Source of the DNA: Vulcanisaeta moutnovskia 768-28
GTDB lineage: Archaea > Thermoproteota > Thermoprotei > Thermoproteales > Thermocladiaceae
Length of the DNA stretch: 64,000 bases
NCBI RefSeq assembly: GCF_000190315.1
Contig: NC_015151.1
Location: forward strand, 1 to 64,000
Reading direction: 5' to 3'
The notes below the pieces were generated by a model that ran no database searches, was not told where the DNA came from, and was given only the letters and a program-made list of their open reading frames with translations. Shown in pieces: positions 39,023-64,000 of this stretch (position 1 is the stretch's first letter; every line of letters starts with the position of its first letter). The translations under genes were made by a program, and so were the position numbers.

Positions 39023-39089
39023 TAGTATTGTCATTCGCATTCTATTTCTGCATGTTAAATTAATATAGTACTGCAAAGCTTGGATTTTA

Positions 39090-40847
39090 ATGGGATTAGA
39101 TAATTGGTTTATTTATAGACCGCCCTTTGATAAATTTGGCGATTTAAAGGAGATTATTCAATGGATTAAAACAAAGAAGGAGCCACCATATATTTGTGTA
39201 TTTCCTGGTAATGCCGAGCATTGGTTTTGGTCCCTTAAGTACTCTGTTAAGGGTGAGGTTGGTTATGCTCTTTGGGGTGATAGAGCTAGTGGGCCCGTAA
39301 GTATTAAAGGCCTTAGTGAGAATACTGGTTTTCCATTTAAGGGTCTCGTTGATAGGTACATTAATGCCTTATTTAGAATTGAGAAAAAGGACGGTAATGC
39401 TAGACTGTTATTGAGGAGGGATCTTAACGATGCAATGCCTATTATTGCTCTTTTTCACGTAATTGATGTTGGGGTTGTCGGGATTGGTTTGGTGACTGAC
39501 ATTACCCTTGATGCTTTTAGGAACTTTAGGCATTGGAGGGAGGACCAGGGTCATTGGATTATTAGGTGGAGGATGAGGGTTCTATGGCTTGACCCTGGCG
39601 TTAGGGCCCTTCTTATGGATCCTGGCTTTGGATGGAGAAATGAGGAGGAATTGATTAAGGTGCTAAAGGATAGAATTACTAATAGGATTGAAATTAATGT
39701 GCCAAGGCAGGGAAATACGTGTTTTACAAATGAGAGTTTGCGTAAAGAGGTTTGGCAGAAGATAAGTGATATATTTCATAATGATGATGAGGTTAAATCC
39801 ATGATTAAATTTTACGGGCATACGCAATTCCCTGCATTATCTAAGCAGGTTCTCGTCGGTATTTCTGAATTTAATATTAATGAAATCGTTAAGAGGATAT
39901 CTGAGGATTTTTACTATGATGAGAGTTTCATTCGTAGGTTCATTAGTGCTGTGCAGTTTGGCAATGTTCTTCTTGTTGGTCCTCCTGGCGTTGGTAAGAC
40001 TAGCCTTGCAATTACTGCAGCAAGATTATTGGGTGGTGATAATGGCTATATGGTTAGAGTTGCAAATGCTCTTTGGTTTAGGAGAGATGTGATTGGTGGT
40101 GAAACTCTTGAGGAGGGCTCTATTAAATGGAGGGCTGGTATGTTAGTTCAGGCTTATAATAATGTTGCCGAAAGAATTAAAAATGGTGATAATCGTCCTT
40201 ACTTTGTAGTTATTGACGAATTTAATAGGGCAGATGTAGATAAGGCCTTTGGTGATTTCTTTGCAATATTTAGATCGCCAAATCCTGAAGATTGGGAAAT
40301 ACCGGTGGATTTAATACGTGAAATTGAAAGTTATAATGAGCATATTGATAATCAAGCTAAATTATTTATTAAGAATTATAGTAACTTTAAAGATGAACCG
40401 TTAAAGTTAATTAGAGTTATTGGTACTATGAATGTTATTGATATTAGGAACCTATTCATGGTTGGTGAGGCTACATTAAGGAGATTCGTAATAATAGAAC
40501 TTAAGTGCCCTACAGATACATATGACGTTGAAATGTTCCTTAAAGAATTAACTACCTTAGATAATCCAATTAAGGACCTAATTAAGGAGTTTATAGGTAG
40601 ATTACGTAAGGATCTTAGTAATAAGCAACTCTGTATATCTCCAGGTAGTGTTAAGAATGCTATACGGTTATTGTCTAATACGTTAGATAAAAAATTGCTC
40701 GATGCTAACGATAAGGCTAAAGTTCTGAATTATTTTGCAGATTACCTTAAGTCATCATTAGGTATAATTGTTGGTACCTCAGCCAAAAAACTCGAGGATA
40801 CTATTAATAGAGTCAAGAGTGAGCTTATAAGTCCTAGTGAGATGTAA
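39090..40847 (+). CDS. McrB-like AAA+ NTPase with EVE/PUA-like N-terminal region
   Basis: A 585-residue protein. Residues about 30-170 read PPYICVFPGNAEHWFW...LWG, then VGIGLVTDI and GHWIIRWRMRVLWL, a layout like EVE/YTH/PUA-like readers of modified bases. The AAA+ core has Walker A GPPGVGKT (297-304), Walker B VVIDEFNRAD (Asp376/Glu377), and GTMNVID (Asn448) followed by EATLRRF: the sequence set of McrB, whose hallmark is MNTAD and DEINRG. McrB proteins form hexamers that move on modified DNA using GTP. Leaderless ATG 39090 follows AAATTAATAT by 28 bp. A nuclease gene begins 5 bp after the stop. The N-domain assignment is inference; the McrB core is firm. Confidence 0.85.
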   Translation: MGLDNWFIYRPPFDKFGDLKEIIQWIKTKKEPPYICVFPGNAEHWFWSLKYSVKGEVGYALWGDRASGPVSIKGLSENTGFPFKGLVDRYINALFRIEKKDGNARLLLRRDLNDAMPIIALFHVIDVGVVGIGLVTDITLDAFRNFRHWREDQGHWIIRWRMRVLWLDPGVRALLMDPGFGWRNEEELIKVLKDRITNRIEINVPRQGNTCFTNESLRKEVWQKISDIFHNDDEVKSMIKFYGHTQFPALSKQVLVGISEFNINEIVKRISEDFYYDESFIRRFISAVQFGNVLLVGPPGVGKTSLAITAARLLGGDNGYMVRVANALWFRRDVIGGETLEEGSIKWRAGMLVQAYNNVAERIKNGDNRPYFVVIDEFNRADVDKAFGDFFAIFRSPNPEDWEIPVDLIREIESYNEHIDNQAKLFIKNYSNFKDEPLKLIRVIGTMNVIDIRNLFMVGEATLRRFVIIELKCPTDTYDVEMFLKELTTLDNPIKDLIKEFIGRLRKDLSNKQLCISPGSVKNAIRLLSNTLDKKLLDANDKAKVLNYFADYLKSSLGIIVGTSAKKLEDTINRVKSELISPSEM

Positions 40848-40852
40848 TTACT

Positions 40853-42154
40853 ATGAGTAGTAGGTACTTAAGAAGGCTGAGAAATTTATCTGTCCTCGTT
40901 GGAAGATATTACGTTAGGCATTACGGTTTACGTAAATCATCAAGAATACTTCGTGTTCTCCTTGGTCATTTACCTGAAGATGCGCATGTACCTATCGATA
41001 ATTTGACTAGGAATTACTTATTCGTGACTATGGGTATGATAATTACTAAAGATCTAATTAGAGCAATTAATGATGCAATACATGATTACATTAGATATAG
41101 GGAGTTTAAAGTTGTTTTTGATAATCAGACATGGGGTGCCCTTGATGTAACACGTACAGTAATAACATATCCCAGCGGACTTTATGCATTTATGACATAC
41201 CTACCAACAAGTAAATCACCAGAATACTTATTACTTAGGGAAATAGCCTCTCGAGCATTAATAAACACAAGACATATAATTAATTGGGTTGAAGATATAA
41301 TACGTAATAGCGATCAAGAGAATAAAGTTATTCATGAATTAAGATATGAGACTAATAACTTAAAGAAGATGGTTGCAAGGCTAAAGCGAAAAATAAATAA
41401 GCTACCAGCATCGACCATTAAGTATGCTCATCGAGATATAATAACCGAGATTGAAAGATTGGCACCTTATGCACCTGCATGGTTATTAGATGCCTATGAC
41501 GCATACTTATTAAGTCGTTTCTTAGGCAGGAAAGTTTATGTTACAACCAGGCGCAAAGTTGGTACTCATGATTTAATAATGCTCGGTTGGAGACTTTATG
41601 AAATATTCATATATATGCTTATACTAGAAATATTTGAAAGCGTGGGTTATAAAATCGAATCGAAAAAGTCGAGAATATTGAGGTTATCTAAAAATGAGAA
41701 GATAATCAATATAGTATTTAATAGACCATTAAGTAATTCTATAATTATGTCTGCAGATTCTAGTAAAGATTTAGCTAAAAGAGTAAGAGGTAGACCTGAT
41801 GTCTCAATTGTAGGAAATGAACATACAATAGTAATTGAATGCAAATTCTCAGAAACACCTACATATATAACCGCTGGTAGGTATAAGGTCATGGCTTACA
41901 TGTACGAATATAATGCCGACCTAGGAATTTTGGTGCTTCCAGGGTTAAATATAAAGATCGTATATGATGAAGAGGATAAGGCAACGGCAAAACTTTGGAG
42001 TATAATTAAAAAATATGGTTATGCAAAAATCTCATTAAACAATAATAAAAATATATATTTAGTAAGGATTGACCCAGGAGAATTCGATGACATTCATAAT
42101 GTATTAAAAACAGCCAAAGAGAGATTATTTAGCATTCTTAACGATATAATTTAG
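40853..42154 (+). CDS. McrC-like PD-(D/E)xK nuclease, partner of the McrB-like ATPase
   Basis: A 433-residue basic protein. The C-terminal third holds a PD-(D/E)xK core: GRPDVSI (Asp316), VIECKFSE (Glu329, Lys331) and a following helix ITAGRYKVMAYMYEY. Before it, LGWRLYEIFIYMLILEIFE resembles the helix that precedes the nuclease in McrC/DUF2357-type proteins. The N-terminal half is alpha-helical and Arg-rich, consistent with an adaptor that docks on the ATPase. It begins 5 bp after the McrB-like stop. McrC cuts DNA when stimulated by McrB. The N-terminus is not recognisable as classical McrC. Confidence 0.8.
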   Translation: MSSRYLRRLRNLSVLVGRYYVRHYGLRKSSRILRVLLGHLPEDAHVPIDNLTRNYLFVTMGMIITKDLIRAINDAIHDYIRYREFKVVFDNQTWGALDVTRTVITYPSGLYAFMTYLPTSKSPEYLLLREIASRALINTRHIINWVEDIIRNSDQENKVIHELRYETNNLKKMVARLKRKINKLPASTIKYAHRDIITEIERLAPYAPAWLLDAYDAYLLSRFLGRKVYVTTRRKVGTHDLIMLGWRLYEIFIYMLILEIFESVGYKIESKKSRILRLSKNEKIINIVFNRPLSNSIIMSADSSKDLAKRVRGRPDVSIVGNEHTIVIECKFSETPTYITAGRYKVMAYMYEYNADLGILVLPGLNIKIVYDEEDKATAKLWSIIKKYGYAKISLNNNKNIYLVRIDPGEFDDIHNVLKTAKERLFSILNDII

Positions 42155-45134: not shown

Positions 45135-45479
45135 TTAAGCGTTAAAAGGGGGTAGCCCTTTACTCATTGCAAGCGCTATATGGAGCGAGTCGTAAATTGG
45201 TAATTTATTATCAATTGCTATCATGAACGCCCTATCAACATACTTCTCCTCAGGCTCTAAAACGACATTCTTACCAATTAAGGACATTAGTATATCACGA
45301 AGTTTAAACGCGTACTCCCTGCTAACAATCCCTTTGACCTGAGCCTTCCATATAGCGTTCATAACCTCCTTAACGATATGATCGATAGAGATGGAATTAG
45401 TGACGTACGTAATTAATGATTGCCAACCAGGTTCCTTAAGTATGAAGGCTGTTAGTGCCGATGTGTCAATTACTATCAC
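45135..45479 (-). CDS. vapC: VapC-type PIN-domain toxin, C-terminus frameshifted
   Basis: 114 residues in this frame, beginning VIDTSALTAFILKE (Asp) with later KEVMNA (Glu) and IYDSLHIAL (Asp). PIN toxins have about 130 residues and end with a fourth acidic loop; here the frame exits at GLPPFNA. If one base of the C5 tract (plus-strand G45148-45152) is removed, translation continues LPLLTLNVKQGEIARMLG to a stop at 45077, giving 133 residues, a normal VapC tail. So a one-base insertion in a homopolymer breaks the gene, or the sequence has an error there. In the restored frame the fourth acidic position would be Asn (TLN). Overlaps vapB by 14 bp. Confidence 0.85.
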   Translation of the reverse strand: MIVIDTSALTAFILKEPGWQSLITYVTNSISIDHIVKEVMNAIWKAQVKGIVSREYAFKLRDILMSLIGKNVVLEPEEKYVDRAFMIAIDNKLPIYDSLHIALAMSKGLPPFNA

Positions 45480-45852: not shown

Positions 45853-46065
45853 GTGCTCAGGAATATCGGCAGCGTTAGACTTAGTTCCGAGGCATGGAGA
45901 TACTTAGCTGTCCTCGCCTCAATATCTATAATTGCTATGTACGTTGAGATGGTTGTCACGCCATCCTTACCAACAATTGAAAAGCAATATGGCGTGACAA
46001 AGTCTGAGGTTCCATGGGCCCTCTCCTCAGAAACCCTTATTGACTTAACCCCACCCCTTAATTAG
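45853..46065 (+). pseudogene. MFS transporter fragment, cut off by the tnpB element
   Basis: The first about 60 residues match the start of a 14-helix DHA2-type exporter: YLAVLASISIIAMYVEMVV followed by TPSLPTIEKQYGVTKSEVPW. The frame then runs into TLIDLTPPLN and stops where the tnpB sequence begins. A promoter-like CTTTTTAATCATTATA and a GTG start are intact. No remaining part of the transporter is found beyond the element, so insertion was followed by loss of the 3' part. Confidence 0.75.
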
Positions 46066-47135
46066 GGCTGCTTGATCGCCCATAGGATCGGCACCAAGTC
46101 TCTATCTGCCTTAAATCCGCACTTTGAACAGATCATTATCCTTCCAGGTAGCTGGGTTAATTCACTGCCACATATTGGGCATGTTGTGCTTGGTAGGCGT
46201 TTGAACTCGTAGGGAATACCGTACCACCTCAGCTGGTTAGTCAGTAATTTTACGAACCTCCTTAAATAGAGCATGTACACTTTAGCTAATCCATTTAACG
46301 GCTTCTCCTCCATCAATTCACGCCTAGATTCCTCAATTATGTCGTCAATAATTACCTTAGCCCTAAGATTAAGGGCCTGCTTAACGAGTATGCTTACGGC
46401 CTTCTGAGCATAGTCCCTCAGGTAGGCGTATAGCCTACGCTTAGTAGCCTTGATTTCGCGCCAAAGCCTCCTACCGTATGGCGTTTTATGAAGGCCGAGC
46501 CTCCTCAAGGCGCCGTACTTTCGCTCAAGCTTGGTGACGTGGTTGTACAGTCTCTCAAGGTTCCTTGTCGAATCCTTAACAATTGCATAAACAATGCCGT
46601 TTTTCCAGGAATTCACGTCAATGACAAGCCTATAATTGCTCGGCGTGATTTGCTCGGCATCACGCTCGAAAGTTATGGCTATGAATAAATGCTCATCATC
46701 GACCCAGGCCCTGGCTAGTTTAGGCTTGCCACCCTCGCTAAGTCTATCACGAATATACTTAGCCTCACTTTCCGTGAGGCTGATAACAATGGCCCTCCTC
46801 TTAATAACCCACCTAAGCCTTAGGGCATTCCTGGTCAAGTCAATGAAGACGCCTTGACCCATATCACGCTCGTTATCGAGCCTAACGCCGACATTGAATA
46901 TTGCATGAACCCTAGCCAACCACCTCTTAACATTAACAAGCCTTAACTCACTCTTAAAGTAATTGAATTTATCCGCAAACCTCGAGTCTAGGCCTATCGG
47001 CCATACCTCAAACCCCCTTGCCCATAGGTTGCCCAATGCGTCAGCCCTGGTAAGGACTTTAACCAATGCCTCACGCTCCTCATTGGTGAATGTCCTTAAT
47101 GGCCTCTTGATTAGTAGTGTACGGTGTGCCAGCAT
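46062..47135 (-). CDS. tnpB: TnpB-like RNA-guided nuclease
   Basis: A 357-residue TnpB. RuvC motif I is LVIDVNSWKNG, motif II IIDDIIEES (Asp at the usual Glu position), the zinc finger is CPIC...CSKC, and motif III is KADRDLVPILWAI. In active TnpB motif II has Glu; the conservative Asp change leaves activity uncertain. The gene starts immediately after the stop of a small upstream gene (TGAATG), so the two are co-translated. Confidence 0.88.
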   Translation of the reverse strand: MLAHRTLLIKRPLRTFTNEEREALVKVLTRADALGNLWARGFEVWPIGLDSRFADKFNYFKSELRLVNVKRWLARVHAIFNVGVRLDNERDMGQGVFIDLTRNALRLRWVIKRRAIVISLTESEAKYIRDRLSEGGKPKLARAWVDDEHLFIAITFERDAEQITPSNYRLVIDVNSWKNGIVYAIVKDSTRNLERLYNHVTKLERKYGALRRLGLHKTPYGRRLWREIKATKRRLYAYLRDYAQKAVSILVKQALNLRAKVIIDDIIEESRRELMEEKPLNGLAKVYMLYLRRFVKLLTNQLRWYGIPYEFKRLPSTTCPICGSELTQLPGRIMICSKCGFKADRDLVPILWAIKQP

Positions 47136-60827: not shown

Positions 60828-63170
60828 ATGAAACGCGAATTAATAGTTAAGCCAGTAATTGGATTGATAACGTACATAGTCAGCATGTTTGAGTTGATCT
60901 ATGTTTGGCTACAATTATTTAATGGGGGTGGTTATTACTACGGGCTTGGGGAGTTGATCCTGAAGTCACTGGGATTATTGAGTATTGACGCTAAAGACCT
61001 TGGTCAAAGCCTATTACTTGGCCCATTAGTAATGAGTGGTTATTTACCGATCTTCATAGCACTCCTCATAGTAATCACAAACTCACTAATCGCAATTTAC
61101 ACGTATAGACTCAGTAGGGCCAGGGGTTTGGAAATGAGCTTCATCCTCCTTCTAGTCCTTGCATCAATAATTAATGCCTCACTCATCAATTTGATGACTA
61201 ATCTCTGGCTCCCGCAGGTGATATCAACGGCATTAGCCATAGCCATGTACTACCACATTGATAGGGATAATAGGCTTGTTAGCGTCACCCTCTCGGCATT
61301 GATGGCATTCCTAAGCCCAGTCACTAATTTGCTCAATGTGCTGGTCCCAATAACCCACTGGTTCATTAAGAGGGAGTTTAATGAATCAAGCCAGTACGTA
61401 GCGACCATAGGCCTGGCAGCATTCACCTACTACTGGATAGCCGGCGCCTACGCCATTACCCACCACGTGACTGCGCAGAGAATACTTAACCAACTCATTT
61501 ACCTACTCTCAACAACCTCCTTCATGCAATTAGCCACCCTGGGCACAGCCATACCAGCCCTAATAACCACCACACTCGGCGGCCTTGGCTATGCCGTGGT
61601 GGTCCCCGCAATACTCATAATAACGCTCATAGAGGCGCTTGGTAAGTTGCGTGAACATAAATTAGCCGTTTTAGCGTTATCCATGGCCCTAATAATCACG
61701 GTACTGACAACGCCAATATCACCAATGTGGCCTCCATACCAGGGAACCGGCCCCATAAACATCAACTGGGAACCACTGGGTAGGGGTTATGCCCATGTCT
61801 ATAGCCTCACTTCACTGGCACCCGCAGGCTACATAGAGAGCTCCGTGGTCCCAACGTACTCGCTAATCACCATAAATCCGGGGAGACAGGCCATGGGCTA
61901 TGTAATACCCGTTAAGCCAATGAACGGTACATACGCGATATGCGGTGATTACCAACTAATCCTTAAGAACTATACAGGTCTTCCAATAATAAATGATTTT
62001 GAGAAATCCATAACCCAATTAATGACCAACGCCACGAGTTATATAGAGGATGACTCATTGACCATACCAGGTGGTTTATACCAAAGCGCCATTGAGGTAA
62101 GCACCAATGAGTTAGCAATACCTCCCGGCATGTACGTGGTGACCACGGCAATAAGAGTAATACCCATAACGCCCTACGTGAACACATCAATACCCCAGGT
62201 TATGTCAACACCATTAACAAGCACGGTACTACCGATAAGCGCAGACTCCGTAATGACCTTCGACCTAAGGCTTAACTTCACGGGAACTATTAATAAGGTA
62301 GTTATCTATGGAGTATCGTACTCAGAACAACCAGCAACTCTTTCACTCACAATACTCAGGAATGGGCAGGTAATCGTAAGAACCTCCGATGAAGCCCCAT
62401 CAATAACGCAGGGAATGAAGCCATACCCAATCAGCTTTAACATAAACGCAAACATCACGCCGGGGACTTACGAACTAAGTATATACACGGACCAGCCACT
62501 CCTCATCTATGTTAGTACGGGCACGGGAATGAAAATAATAAGCAATAACTCAACACTTAATTATCCCGGTGAGATCCCCGCGTACTCCATAATATACACA
62601 ATCACCAAAGCCGTACCTGTGAAATTCACGTGGTTAAGGGTTTCATTAAGCGCCATTAATCAAGTAACCATGATGAACATAACAAGTGGTGGTACCTATG
62701 AGTTGAGGGACGTAATTACCGTAACTCATTGGGTCAACTCATCAATAAGTCTCTTAATAACCGTGAATGAGCCGGTACTACTCACGAACATAACCATAGG
62801 CCCAATATCAATAAAGCCCCTAGAGCCAACGCACTGTCCAGCACCAATGATCATTAGGGCGCTCGAGGATCCAGGCAGATCATTACTGATAAGCCTAGCC
62901 GCATTACCCATAGCAGCGGCGCTACCATTAATGCCAAGCCTAAGGCCTAGACGGAGGATGAGGAAGGCATTACTCATCCTTGGACTAGCCCTAATGCTCC
63001 TATTCTACGTAGTGTGGGCCCTGGGCTTCACAAACCTGGCACCACAACTATATAGCCCAGGCGTGTTGAGGATATTCGGTATACTTTTTATAATAGGACT
63101 AGTGATTGTGCTGGTGATGTCGTTTATGGTTAAGCGTTTCCCCGCTCACGATGCTTCTAGTGGATTTTAA
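60828..63170 (+). CDS. Large polytopic membrane protein with a surface domain
   Basis: A 780-residue protein: about 8 or 9 hydrophobic helices in residues 1-300, a 350-residue outer domain with many N-x-S/T sites and beta-rich composition (residues about 310-680), then two helices and a basic tail. The layout resembles archaeal glycan-handling or surface-assembly proteins such as oligosaccharyl-type transferases, but I see none of their catalytic motifs (for example no WWDYG). Function unknown. Its 3' end overlaps the convergent TnpB-like gene by 14 bp. Confidence 0.7.
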   Translation: MKRELIVKPVIGLITYIVSMFELIYVWLQLFNGGGYYYGLGELILKSLGLLSIDAKDLGQSLLLGPLVMSGYLPIFIALLIVITNSLIAIYTYRLSRARGLEMSFILLLVLASIINASLINLMTNLWLPQVISTALAIAMYYHIDRDNRLVSVTLSALMAFLSPVTNLLNVLVPITHWFIKREFNESSQYVATIGLAAFTYYWIAGAYAITHHVTAQRILNQLIYLLSTTSFMQLATLGTAIPALITTTLGGLGYAVVVPAILIITLIEALGKLREHKLAVLALSMALIITVLTTPISPMWPPYQGTGPININWEPLGRGYAHVYSLTSLAPAGYIESSVVPTYSLITINPGRQAMGYVIPVKPMNGTYAICGDYQLILKNYTGLPIINDFEKSITQLMTNATSYIEDDSLTIPGGLYQSAIEVSTNELAIPPGMYVVTTAIRVIPITPYVNTSIPQVMSTPLTSTVLPISADSVMTFDLRLNFTGTINKVVIYGVSYSEQPATLSLTILRNGQVIVRTSDEAPSITQGMKPYPISFNINANITPGTYELSIYTDQPLLIYVSTGTGMKIISNNSTLNYPGEIPAYSIIYTITKAVPVKFTWLRVSLSAINQVTMMNITSGGTYELRDVITVTHWVNSSISLLITVNEPVLLTNITIGPISIKPLEPTHCPAPMIIRALEDPGRSLLISLAALPIAAALPLMPSLRPRRRMRKALLILGLALMLLFYVVWALGFTNLAPQLYSPGVLRIFGILFIIGLVIVLVMSFMVKRFPAHDASSGF

Positions 63171-64000
63171 TTGCTTTTATCTCCGTGGGCGGGGTTGGTC
63201 CTTGGTTCGGCGTCATTAGCTTCAGCCGAACTTCATGGGGCCCTGTCGAGGCCAACGCCATTGGGCTCCCACCTGTGGATAGGTATTTCAGCCCGATGTT
63301 TATGGCTCCAATGACGTCCCTATCTAGGACTAACCCGTTGCCCAGTCTGGTAAGTCTAAGGGCGATTTTGACTACCCTTATTCTCCTGACCCCTCTCACC
63401 GCAGTGCGGATCACGGAGGGGTTGAAGGACTTGATGCGGTTGCCGGTGAATGGGTCTGTGCTTGAGGAGTAGGCCTCGGAAACCTCCACAACGTGGATGG
63501 GCTTCCCACCCAAGACCCTCACTAGCGTTGCAACGCTCCACTGGTGTATCCTATGCGTTAACCTCTTATTGCCACTCTCATTGATAAGCCTCCTCTTGCC
63601 CCTATGGACGTTCCCAACAACCACAACTGCGTTGTTCGCAAGAGCCAACTCCTCAATAATCCTCGCTGTCTTGTAGATAATATCCATCTTCCTCTCCCTC
63701 TCCCTCAACTTCCTGAGTGCCTTCCTCACTTCCCTATCCCTGGTCGACCTACCCTTCGTAATCCTCTTCCTCCTCTCAGAGTAGGCAATAACTATCCTAC
63801 CTAGGTTAGTTTCAATCCTGTAAACATCGCTGAGGCCGCCATCCTTGAATACCGCCAGCGTGACGTTGTTCTCATTAACATCAACAGCAATGACGTTGTT
63901 AGGGTTGTAGGTAACCTCGAAGTCCCTCTTGAAAGTAAGGTAGAGCAGCACCCTCTTCCCATCAAGCTTTATCTTGAGTTCATCAGTGAGCCTCCACCCA
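63157..64000 (-). CDS. TnpB-like protein, RuvC Glu and zinc-finger Cys missing (partial at window end)
   Basis: Open to the window edge, 5' end outside. RuvC motif I is NVIAVDVNENNVTLAVF; motif II, normally with Glu, reads VVVVGNVHRGKRR; motif III is VLDRDVIGAINIG. Where the zinc finger should be, the sequence is EVSEAYSSSTDPFTGNRIKSF, without any CxxC. So at least one catalytic acidic residue and the metal site are lost, while the frame stays open for over 280 codons. The C-terminal STGPHEVRLKLMTPNQG is typical of crenarchaeal TnpB tails, which overlap the guide RNA. Either a nuclease-dead exapted TnpB or a decaying relic kept in frame. Confidence 0.8.
   Translation of the reverse strand, partial: GWRLTDELKIKLDGKRVLLYLTFKRDFEVTYNPNNVIAVDVNENNVTLAVFKDGGLSDVYRIETNLGRIVIAYSERRKRITKGRSTRDREVRKALRKLRERERKMDIIYKTARIIEELALANNAVVVVGNVHRGKRRLINESGNKRLTHRIHQWSVATLVRVLGGKPIHVVEVSEAYSSSTDPFTGNRIKSFNPSVIRTAVRGVRRIRVVKIALRLTRLGNGLVLDRDVIGAINIGLKYLSTGGSPMALASTGPHEVRLKLMTPNQGPTPPTEIKAIKIH

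What the first reader, a model, noticed from the sequence alone, without database searches (positions are those of the whole stretch)
39090..42154. Divergent McrBC-like module: EVE/PUA-like-McrB NTPase with PD-(D/E)xK partner
Two genes 5 bp apart encode an AAA+ protein with McrB hallmarks (GPPGVGKT, DEFNRAD, MNVID, LRRF) and a nuclease with D316, E329, K331. The N-terminal region of the ATPase looks like an EVE/PUA-type base reader, while the nuclease's N-terminal half is unlike classical McrC. Known archaeal McrB homologues use YTH/EVE-like readers of modified bases, so this should be a type IV restriction system whose recognised modification is unknown. The NTD and partner architecture may be a new subtype.
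Basis: partly seen in the sequence, partly recalled or inferred. Interest (0 to 1): 0.75.

Follow-up and report, generated by a model that had tools for sequence, protein, structure and literature searches.

The report
Divergent McrBC system with YTH-like reader
Two neighbouring archaeal genes most likely form a motor-driven DNA-cutting defence (McrBC type) that finds chemically marked foreign DNA with a YTH-like reader domain; it is a new, database-invisible variant of a known kind, common in heat-loving archaea.

Summary
Window 39090-40847 encodes a 585-aa McrB-like AAA+ protein. Window 40853-42154, 5 bp downstream, encodes a 433-aa PD-(D/E)xK protein with D316/E329/K331. The genome is a Vulcanisaeta. 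Relatives of the nuclease occur in 41 of 398 Thermoproteota genomes, and the gene lay beside a McrB-like ATPase in nearly every locus examined.

Its AlphaFold2 model (pLDDT 91) matches E. coli McrC best in the PDB, over 406 columns, and a profile-profile alignment to known McrCs is far above shuffled controls. Pfam, NCBIfam and PADLOC miss it.

The ATPase N-terminus is predicted (pLDDT 87) to be a YTH/EVE/PUA-type barrel. The 41 best PDB matches are all YTH N6-methyladenine readers. Sequence profiles do not confirm this, so it rests on structure. Conserved tryptophans lie where YTH domains place their methyl-binding cage.

All 20 aligned ATPases lack the aromatic residue that stacks on guanine in E. 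coli and Thermococcus McrB, so GTP use is uncertain.

Best reading: a type IV, modification-dependent restriction system, new variant of McrBC, possibly reading N6-methyladenine. The modification, the nucleotide used and DNA cutting are untested.

The parts
39060..39067 (+). TATA-like box TTAATATA, 23-30 bases upstream of the ATG, which would fit a leaderless transcript of the two-gene operon
   Evidence: Read directly from the sequence; not tested against chance in this AT-rich stretch
39090..40847 (+). McrB-like AAA+ NTPase gene (585 aa) with N-terminal reader domain
39189..39590 (+). Predicted YTH/EVE-like barrel (aa 34-167); candidate cage tryptophans W62, W149, W156
   Evidence: AF2 pLDDT 87; Foldseek ranks 1-41 all YTH domains; conservation W62 30/30, W149 28/30, aa 156 W/F/Y in 30/30
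39978..40001 (+). Walker A GPPGVGKT (aa 297-304); the next residue is S305 where EcMcrB has F and TgMcrB W
40215..40235 (+). Walker B DEFNRAD (aa 376-382)
40428..40442 (+). McrB consensus loop MNxxD (MNVID, aa 447-451); followed by IR, one residue longer than the MNTADR of E. coli
40479..40487 (+). RRF (aa 464-466), position of the trans-acting arginine pair of TgMcrB (Arg425/Arg426)
   Evidence: function from PMC7680126
40853..42154 (+). Divergent McrC-like nuclease gene (433 aa)
40853..41527 (+). McrC-like finger domain (about aa 1-225): helical bundle with a short beta stalk
   Evidence: AF2, Foldseek to 6ut6_G, hhalign
41111..41194 (+). Stalk hairpin (strands 87-90 and 111-114) with a helix 99-108 at the tip; contains invariant G95
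41570..42067 (+). PD-(D/E)xK nuclease domain (about aa 240-405)
41798..41800 (+). Catalytic D316
   Evidence: 33/33
41837..41845 (+). Catalytic E329-C330-K331 (ExK)
   Evidence: E/D 33/33, K 33/33

Best explanation
The two genes encode a McrBC-type, modification-dependent (type IV) restriction complex. The McrB-like AAA+ proteins assemble into a ring whose N-terminal YTH/EVE-like domains bind a modified base flipped into an aromatic pocket. The McrC-like protein inserts its helical finger into the ring, stimulates NTP hydrolysis through the NxxD loop, and carries a PD-(D/E)xK nuclease that cuts DNA when the motor is blocked or meets another complex. Shown here: the gene pair, its motifs, its conservation, the McrC-like fold and the predicted YTH-like fold. 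Inferred: ring assembly, stimulation, base flipping and cleavage, by analogy with E. coli and Thermococcus gammatolerans McrBC. Most likely target: N6-methyladenine, as for the YTH domain of T. gammatolerans McrB (about 40%). The nucleotide may be GTP or ATP.
For: McrB motifs invariant across 20 relatives; the family profile hits E. coli McrB (E 9e-26) well ahead of any AAA+ protein outside McrB. The nuclease model's best PDB matches are two McrC chains, 6ut6_G (E 1e-6, prob 1.00, 406 columns) and 7vsr_M. hhalign to three Pfam-recognised McrCs: score 53.3 against a maximum of 24.5 in 60 column shuffles, 278 columns spanning both halves. The family HMM finds a Pfam-positive McrC at E 3e-5 and two intermediates at 5e-14 and 2e-10. 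Reader domain: AF2 pLDDT 87 with a beta-alpha-beta-alpha-beta barrel order; 41 best PDB matches all YTH. The N-terminal domain is exchanged between relatives while the motor and nuclease stay together, as expected of a specificity module. Low G+C (nuclease 32.6% against 41.5%), patchy presence in the genus and decayed copies in relatives fit a mobile defence gene. YTH binding of methyladenine DNA by TgMcrB: PMC7641849.
Against: No biochemistry. The guanine-stacking aromatic is missing in 20/20. The genome itself carries a C5-cytosine methyltransferase and an NPPF-type methyltransferase frame, so the host may bear both marks and the target must differ in context or kind. There is no defence island around the pair.
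Confidence: 0.75

Rival explanations
1. The same complex, but the reader recognises another modification (4mC, 5mC/5hmC or a hypermodified viral base) rather than N6-methyladenine.
For: EVE-type domains occur as readers in many restriction systems (PMC7641849). MJECL36 has a YTH-like fold and cage but showed no detectable m6A binding (PMC6112328). The host has an NPPF-type methyltransferase that could make 6mA.
Against: The best structural matches are uniformly m6A readers. The host also encodes a C5-cytosine methyltransferase, which argues against general 5mC targeting.
Confidence: 0.5
2. The complex targets modified RNA rather than DNA, as proposed for CoCoNuTs, with the YTH-like domain reading m6A in RNA.
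For: Eukaryotic YTH domains read RNA. Some McrBC relatives are predicted to target RNA (PMC11090510).
Against: No RNase domain, Hsp70 or OB-fold partner; NxxD rather than the NxD of CoCoNuTs. TgMcrB's YTH domain binds DNA rather than RNA (PMC8868631). The PD-(D/E)xK nuclease of McrC is a DNase.
Confidence: 0.08
3. A chromosomal housekeeping or repair NTPase-nuclease pair that is not a defence system.
For: Flanked by metabolic genes. Deleting McrBC pairs in Thermococcus kodakarensis slows growth, which hints at further roles (PMC13385129). The nuclease profile also hits 4ic1, a Cas4-like protein (E 1.7e-5; the Cas4 identity is from my own knowledge).
Against: Patchy, with decayed copies; exchangeable N-terminal domains; low G+C. 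One cysteine only, so no iron-sulfur cluster as in Cas4/AddB. The full-length fold is McrC.
Confidence: 0.1
4. A stand-alone PD-(D/E)xK nuclease that happens to lie beside an unrelated AAA+ gene.
For: No Pfam, NCBIfam or PADLOC family above cut-off for the nuclease.
Against: Nuclease relatives lie next to a McrB-like gene in nearly every locus examined, in both gene orders. McrC finger fold.
Confidence: 0.01

Closest known systems
Thermococcus gammatolerans McrBC (TgMcrB with YTH-like N-terminal domain; TgMcrC)
   Same: Two-gene system: YTH-like reader + NxxD AAA+ motor, and finger + PD-(D/E)xK partner. Family profile matches TgMcrB (E 1.9e-16).
   Different: No sequence match between the reader domains. 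TgMcrB has Trp after GKT, this family has S/T/E/L/Q. This McrC has no N-terminal scaffold barrel and a short stalk. One extra residue after NxxD.
E. coli K-12 McrBC
   Same: AAA+ domain aligns over about 240 residues. The full nuclease fold matches McrC. EcMcrC also lacks most of the N-terminal scaffold (PMC7680126).
   Different: E. coli McrB reads modified cytosine with a DUF3578 (ADAM) domain, not a YTH/EVE-like one. F instead of S after GKT. About 12% identity in McrC.
Pfam McrBC family PF10117 (canonical McrC)
   Same: Homologous by profile-profile alignment over both halves.
   Different: Below the Pfam cut-off. In Thermoproteota PF10117 is found above cut-off in 4 of 250 genomes, the new family in 41 of 398.
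YTH domain (YTHDF2, Mmi1, YTHDC1)
   Same: Predicted barrel fold; conserved Trp in strand 2 and Trp before the last strand.
   Different: No significant sequence similarity. Ligand unknown.
EVE-McrB fusions (Bell et al. 2020, PMC7641849)
   Same: PUA-superfamily reader fused to a McrB-like motor.
   Different: No PF01878 match in 30 relatives.
CoCoNuTs (PMC11090510)
   Same: McrB/McrC relatives.
   Different: CoCoNuTs have NxD, coiled coils and extra RNA-related parts; the motif differs here and no such domains were found.

Membership tests
McrB (AAA+ motor of McrBC) | AAA+ core closest to McrB, with DE[ILFV]NR Walker B and MNxxD loop replacing sensor I | tested here: met
   E 9.1e-26 to EcMcrB by family profile. 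E377, N379, R380, N448, D451 invariant in 20/20.
McrB (AAA+ motor of McrBC) | Double arginine RR(F) acting in trans | tested here: met
   R464, R465 invariant 20/20
McrB (AAA+ motor of McrBC) | Aromatic residue after GKT that stacks on guanine (EcMcrB F, TgMcrB W223); a trait of the two studied enzymes, not shown to define the family | tested here: not met
   S, T, E, L or Q in 20/20. This bears on GTP specificity, not on fold or family.
McrB (AAA+ motor of McrBC) | GTP-specific hydrolysis | not testable with these tools
   Needs an enzyme assay
McrC | N-terminal finger (DUF2357-like) domain: helical bundle, beta stalk, loop-helix-loop tip | tested here: met
   AF2 pLDDT 91; Foldseek 6ut6_G E 1e-6, prob 1.00, 406 columns; hhalign score 53.3 over 278 columns, shuffles at most 24.5. 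The finger half alone is not significant by sequence.
McrC | C-terminal PD-(D/E)xK nuclease | tested here: met
   D316, E/D329, K331 conserved; profile hit to 4ic1
McrC | Match to Pfam PF10117 above its cut-off (a detection rule, not a defining trait) | tested here: not met
   No match in P0002; best E 0.16, in 3 of 33 relatives
McrC | Encoded next to McrB | tested here: met
   5-bp gap here; McrB-like neighbour in nearly all loci examined
McrC | Basic residue (Tg R263, Ec K157) inserted at the motor's active site | not tested
   Position could not be mapped without coordinates of the model
YTH domain | YTH/PUA-type barrel | tested here: met
   Predicted only; Foldseek ranks 1-41 all YTH, E 5e-3 to 0.3, prob up to 0.99
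YTH domain | Sequence profile match | tested here: not met
   No Pfam YTH match in 30 relatives at E 1; hhalign score within shuffles. The YTH profile used held only two sequences.
YTH domain | Aromatic cage for the methyl group | tested here: inconclusive
   W62 30/30, W149 28/30, aromatic at 156 in 30/30 at topologically matching places; no superposition possible
EVE domain | Match to PF01878 | tested here: not met
   None of 30; with one EVE set hhalign beats 100 of 100 shuffles, but with probability of only about 10%
Type IV restriction | Cuts modified DNA; no own methyltransferase in the operon | tested here: inconclusive
   No methyltransferase in or beside the operon; cleavage not testable here
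CoCoNuT | NxD motif, coiled coils, RNA-related domains | tested here: not met
   NxxD in 20/20; no such domains found

The most novel reading that the evidence does not exclude
A distinct Thermoproteota subtype of McrBC whose motor has lost guanine specificity (uses ATP), with a compact McrC, and whose YTH-like domain restricts N6-methyladenine-marked DNA in a lineage whose own methylation is little studied.
Probability: 0.2. Interest if true: 0.6.

Novelty: new variant of a known kind. Interest (0 to 1): 0.42.

Why it matters
Standard annotation misses this McrC family, so type IV restriction in hot-spring archaea is undercounted: Pfam's McrC family was found in 4 of 250 Thermoproteota genomes, this one in 41 of 398. 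The system offers a heat-stable modified-base reader for test, and a natural case in which a McrB-like motor lacks the residue that holds guanine. It could also matter for transforming Sulfolobales and Thermoproteales, since McrBC pairs limit transformation in Thermococcus kodakarensis (PMC13385129).

Tried and rejected
Pfam, NCBIfam, PADLOC and PHROGs on the nuclease: nothing useful. CoCoNuT membership rejected (NxD motif absent). Cas4-type Fe-S nuclease rejected (single cysteine). Empty-site comparison: the flanking M20 peptidase has only distant relatives (about 30-50% identity) in other Vulcanisaeta, so no empty site could be defined. Flanking repeats: only chance-level matches. Adenine methyltransferase exclusion in the genus: too few genomes to judge. 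Plasmids and phages: no relative. PF04411 search was uninformative since no control rang.

Full report
WHAT IS THERE. The window lies in a complete 2,298,983-base genome; the closest named record found is Vulcanisaeta distributa JCM 11217. Two genes on the + strand, 39090-40847 and 40853-42154, are separated by 5 bp. The first has the AAA_5 domain (E 4e-13), and its best named relative is McrB (PRK11331, E 6.5e-12, far below that model's own cut-off; E. coli McrB 6hz4, E 1.1e-11). The second has no family in Pfam, NCBIfam, PADLOC or PHROGs.

CONSERVATION. Searching 398 Thermoproteota genomes with the nuclease gave matches in 41. In nearly all of the loci fetched, a McrB-like AAA+ gene lies immediately next to it, in either gene order. 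Exceptions are a contig end and the remnant in Vulcanisaeta sp. JCM 14467. In V. distributa JCM 11217 the ATPase frame is broken in several places while the nuclease frame is intact. This pattern, the low G+C of the operon (nuclease 32.6%, window 41.5%, 4th lowest of 314 windows) and the absence of any shared close neighbour with the other loci fit a horizontally moving gene pair. The surroundings are metabolic genes, not a defence island. The genome holds no second McrB.

THE MOTOR. All catalytic marks of McrB are invariant in 20 relatives: K303, T304, E377, N379, R380, N448, D451, R464, R465. Their roles in TgMcrB and EcMcrB are described in PMC7680126. Two differences stand out. The residue after GKT, an aromatic that stacks on guanine in EcMcrB (F) and TgMcrB (W223), is S/T/E/L/Q in all 20 relatives. 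The loop after NxxD is one residue longer than in E. coli (MNVIDIRN against MNTADRS). GTP specificity should therefore not be assumed.

THE NUCLEASE. The profile of 33 relatives hits a PD-(D/E)xK structure (4ic1, E 1.7e-5), which I know as a Cas4-like protein. D316, P315 and K331 are invariant, and position 329 is E in 30 and D in 3. AlphaFold2 gave pLDDT 90.9: a mostly helical N-terminal half with a short beta hairpin (87-90, 111-114) holding a helix at its tip (99-108), then the nuclease fold. That is the order of parts of the McrC finger domain (helical bundle, stalk, loop-helix-loop tip). Foldseek's two best PDB matches are E. coli McrC chains, 6ut6_G (E 1e-6, probability 1.00, 406 columns) and 7vsr_M. 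TM-scores are low (0.25-0.38), so the match is of parts in order, not of a rigid whole. Profile-profile alignment to three Pfam-recognised archaeal McrCs gives probability 88.6 and score 53.3 over 278 columns, against a maximum of 24.5 in 60 column-shuffled controls; the N-terminal half alone is not significant by sequence. The family HMM also finds one Pfam-positive McrC (E 3e-5) and two intermediates (E 5e-14, 2e-10). Pfam's McrC family is found above cut-off in 4 of 250 Thermoproteota genomes.

A 30-sequence alignment of the N-terminal domain gave a model of pLDDT 87.3 with strands and helices in the order beta-alpha-beta-alpha followed by strands, close to the EVE order described in PMC7641849. 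Foldseek ranks 1-41 in the PDB are all YTH domains (best E 5.3e-3, probability 0.99), followed by ASCH, MspJI and a DUF55/EVE protein. Sequence tests do not add support: no Pfam match among 30 relatives, no PDB sequence match, and hhalign probability at most about 10%. With one EVE set the real score exceeds all 100 shuffles, but only weakly. W62 (30/30), W149 (28/30) and an aromatic at 156 (30/30) sit in strand 2 and in the loop before, or at the start of, the last long strand, the places where YTHDC1 keeps W377 and W428. A YTH-like fold with an aromatic cage need not bind m6A: MJECL36 does not detectably.

MODULARITY. A tree of the AAA+ domains places 30 rows in a well-supported clade (100/99), apart from canonical McrBs. 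Within it, the same-order f2 relatives, one copy in the same family (L035) and the second copy in G173 carry other N-terminal domains. Many of those still show the pattern ENW...SL...ILWAF...YWP...KFFI, so they look like differently specialised readers of the same general sort. This is by eye, not tested by folding. Exchange of the N-terminal module on a constant motor-nuclease chassis is what a specificity domain is expected to show.

HOST MARKS. The genome carries an intact C5-cytosine methyltransferase frame (about 330 aa, C1:2273369-2274292) and a 524-aa frame with an NPPF motif and weak N6_Mtase/Eco57I matches (C1:1839175-1839747). General restriction of 5mC is therefore unlikely, but 6mA restriction would also need to spare the host's own sites.

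VERDICT. A McrBC-type modification-dependent restriction system, new variant: YTH-like reader, motor without the guanine-stacking aromatic, compact and Pfam-invisible McrC, widespread in Thermoproteota. Function, nucleotide and target mark are inferred.

Noticed in passing
L041:4230-5129, L051:5698-6618 and matching genes in L045, L046, L063: A GP88-family gene (PF17338, E 5e-25 and 3e-27 for the two tested) lies next to and divergent from the McrBC pair in same-order (f2) loci (5 loci); it may be an associated part or shared synteny.
   Followed up: partly
L102:1351-1989, L103:1318-1992, L171:4437-5012: Stand-alone proteins of 192-225 aa made of the reader domain alone, without an AAA+ domain, in three genomes.
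   Followed up: partly
L034:6123-7858: In V. distributa JCM 11217 the ATPase frame is broken into pieces while the nuclease frame is intact; Vulcanisaeta sp. JCM 14467 (L064) keeps only a remnant.
   Followed up: partly
L056:13685-15733: Second copy in G173: a 683-aa McrB-like protein with an unlike, much longer N-terminal region beside its own nuclease gene.
   Followed up: no
L060:8522-14799: G155 has a tandem array of two McrB-like genes and two partner genes, one of which weakly matches PDDEXK_7.
   Followed up: no
L168:5078-7670 and L169:4999-7862: A further McrBC type in same-order (f2) genomes, intermediate by sequence between canonical McrC and this family.
   Followed up: partly
window 46062-47135 and 63157-63951: Two frames that look like TnpB/IS605-type transposon proteins (read by eye; not searched).
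   Followed up: no
window 45135-45479: A PIN-domain-like toxin frame 3 kb downstream of the operon (by eye; a relative lies in L050).
   Followed up: no
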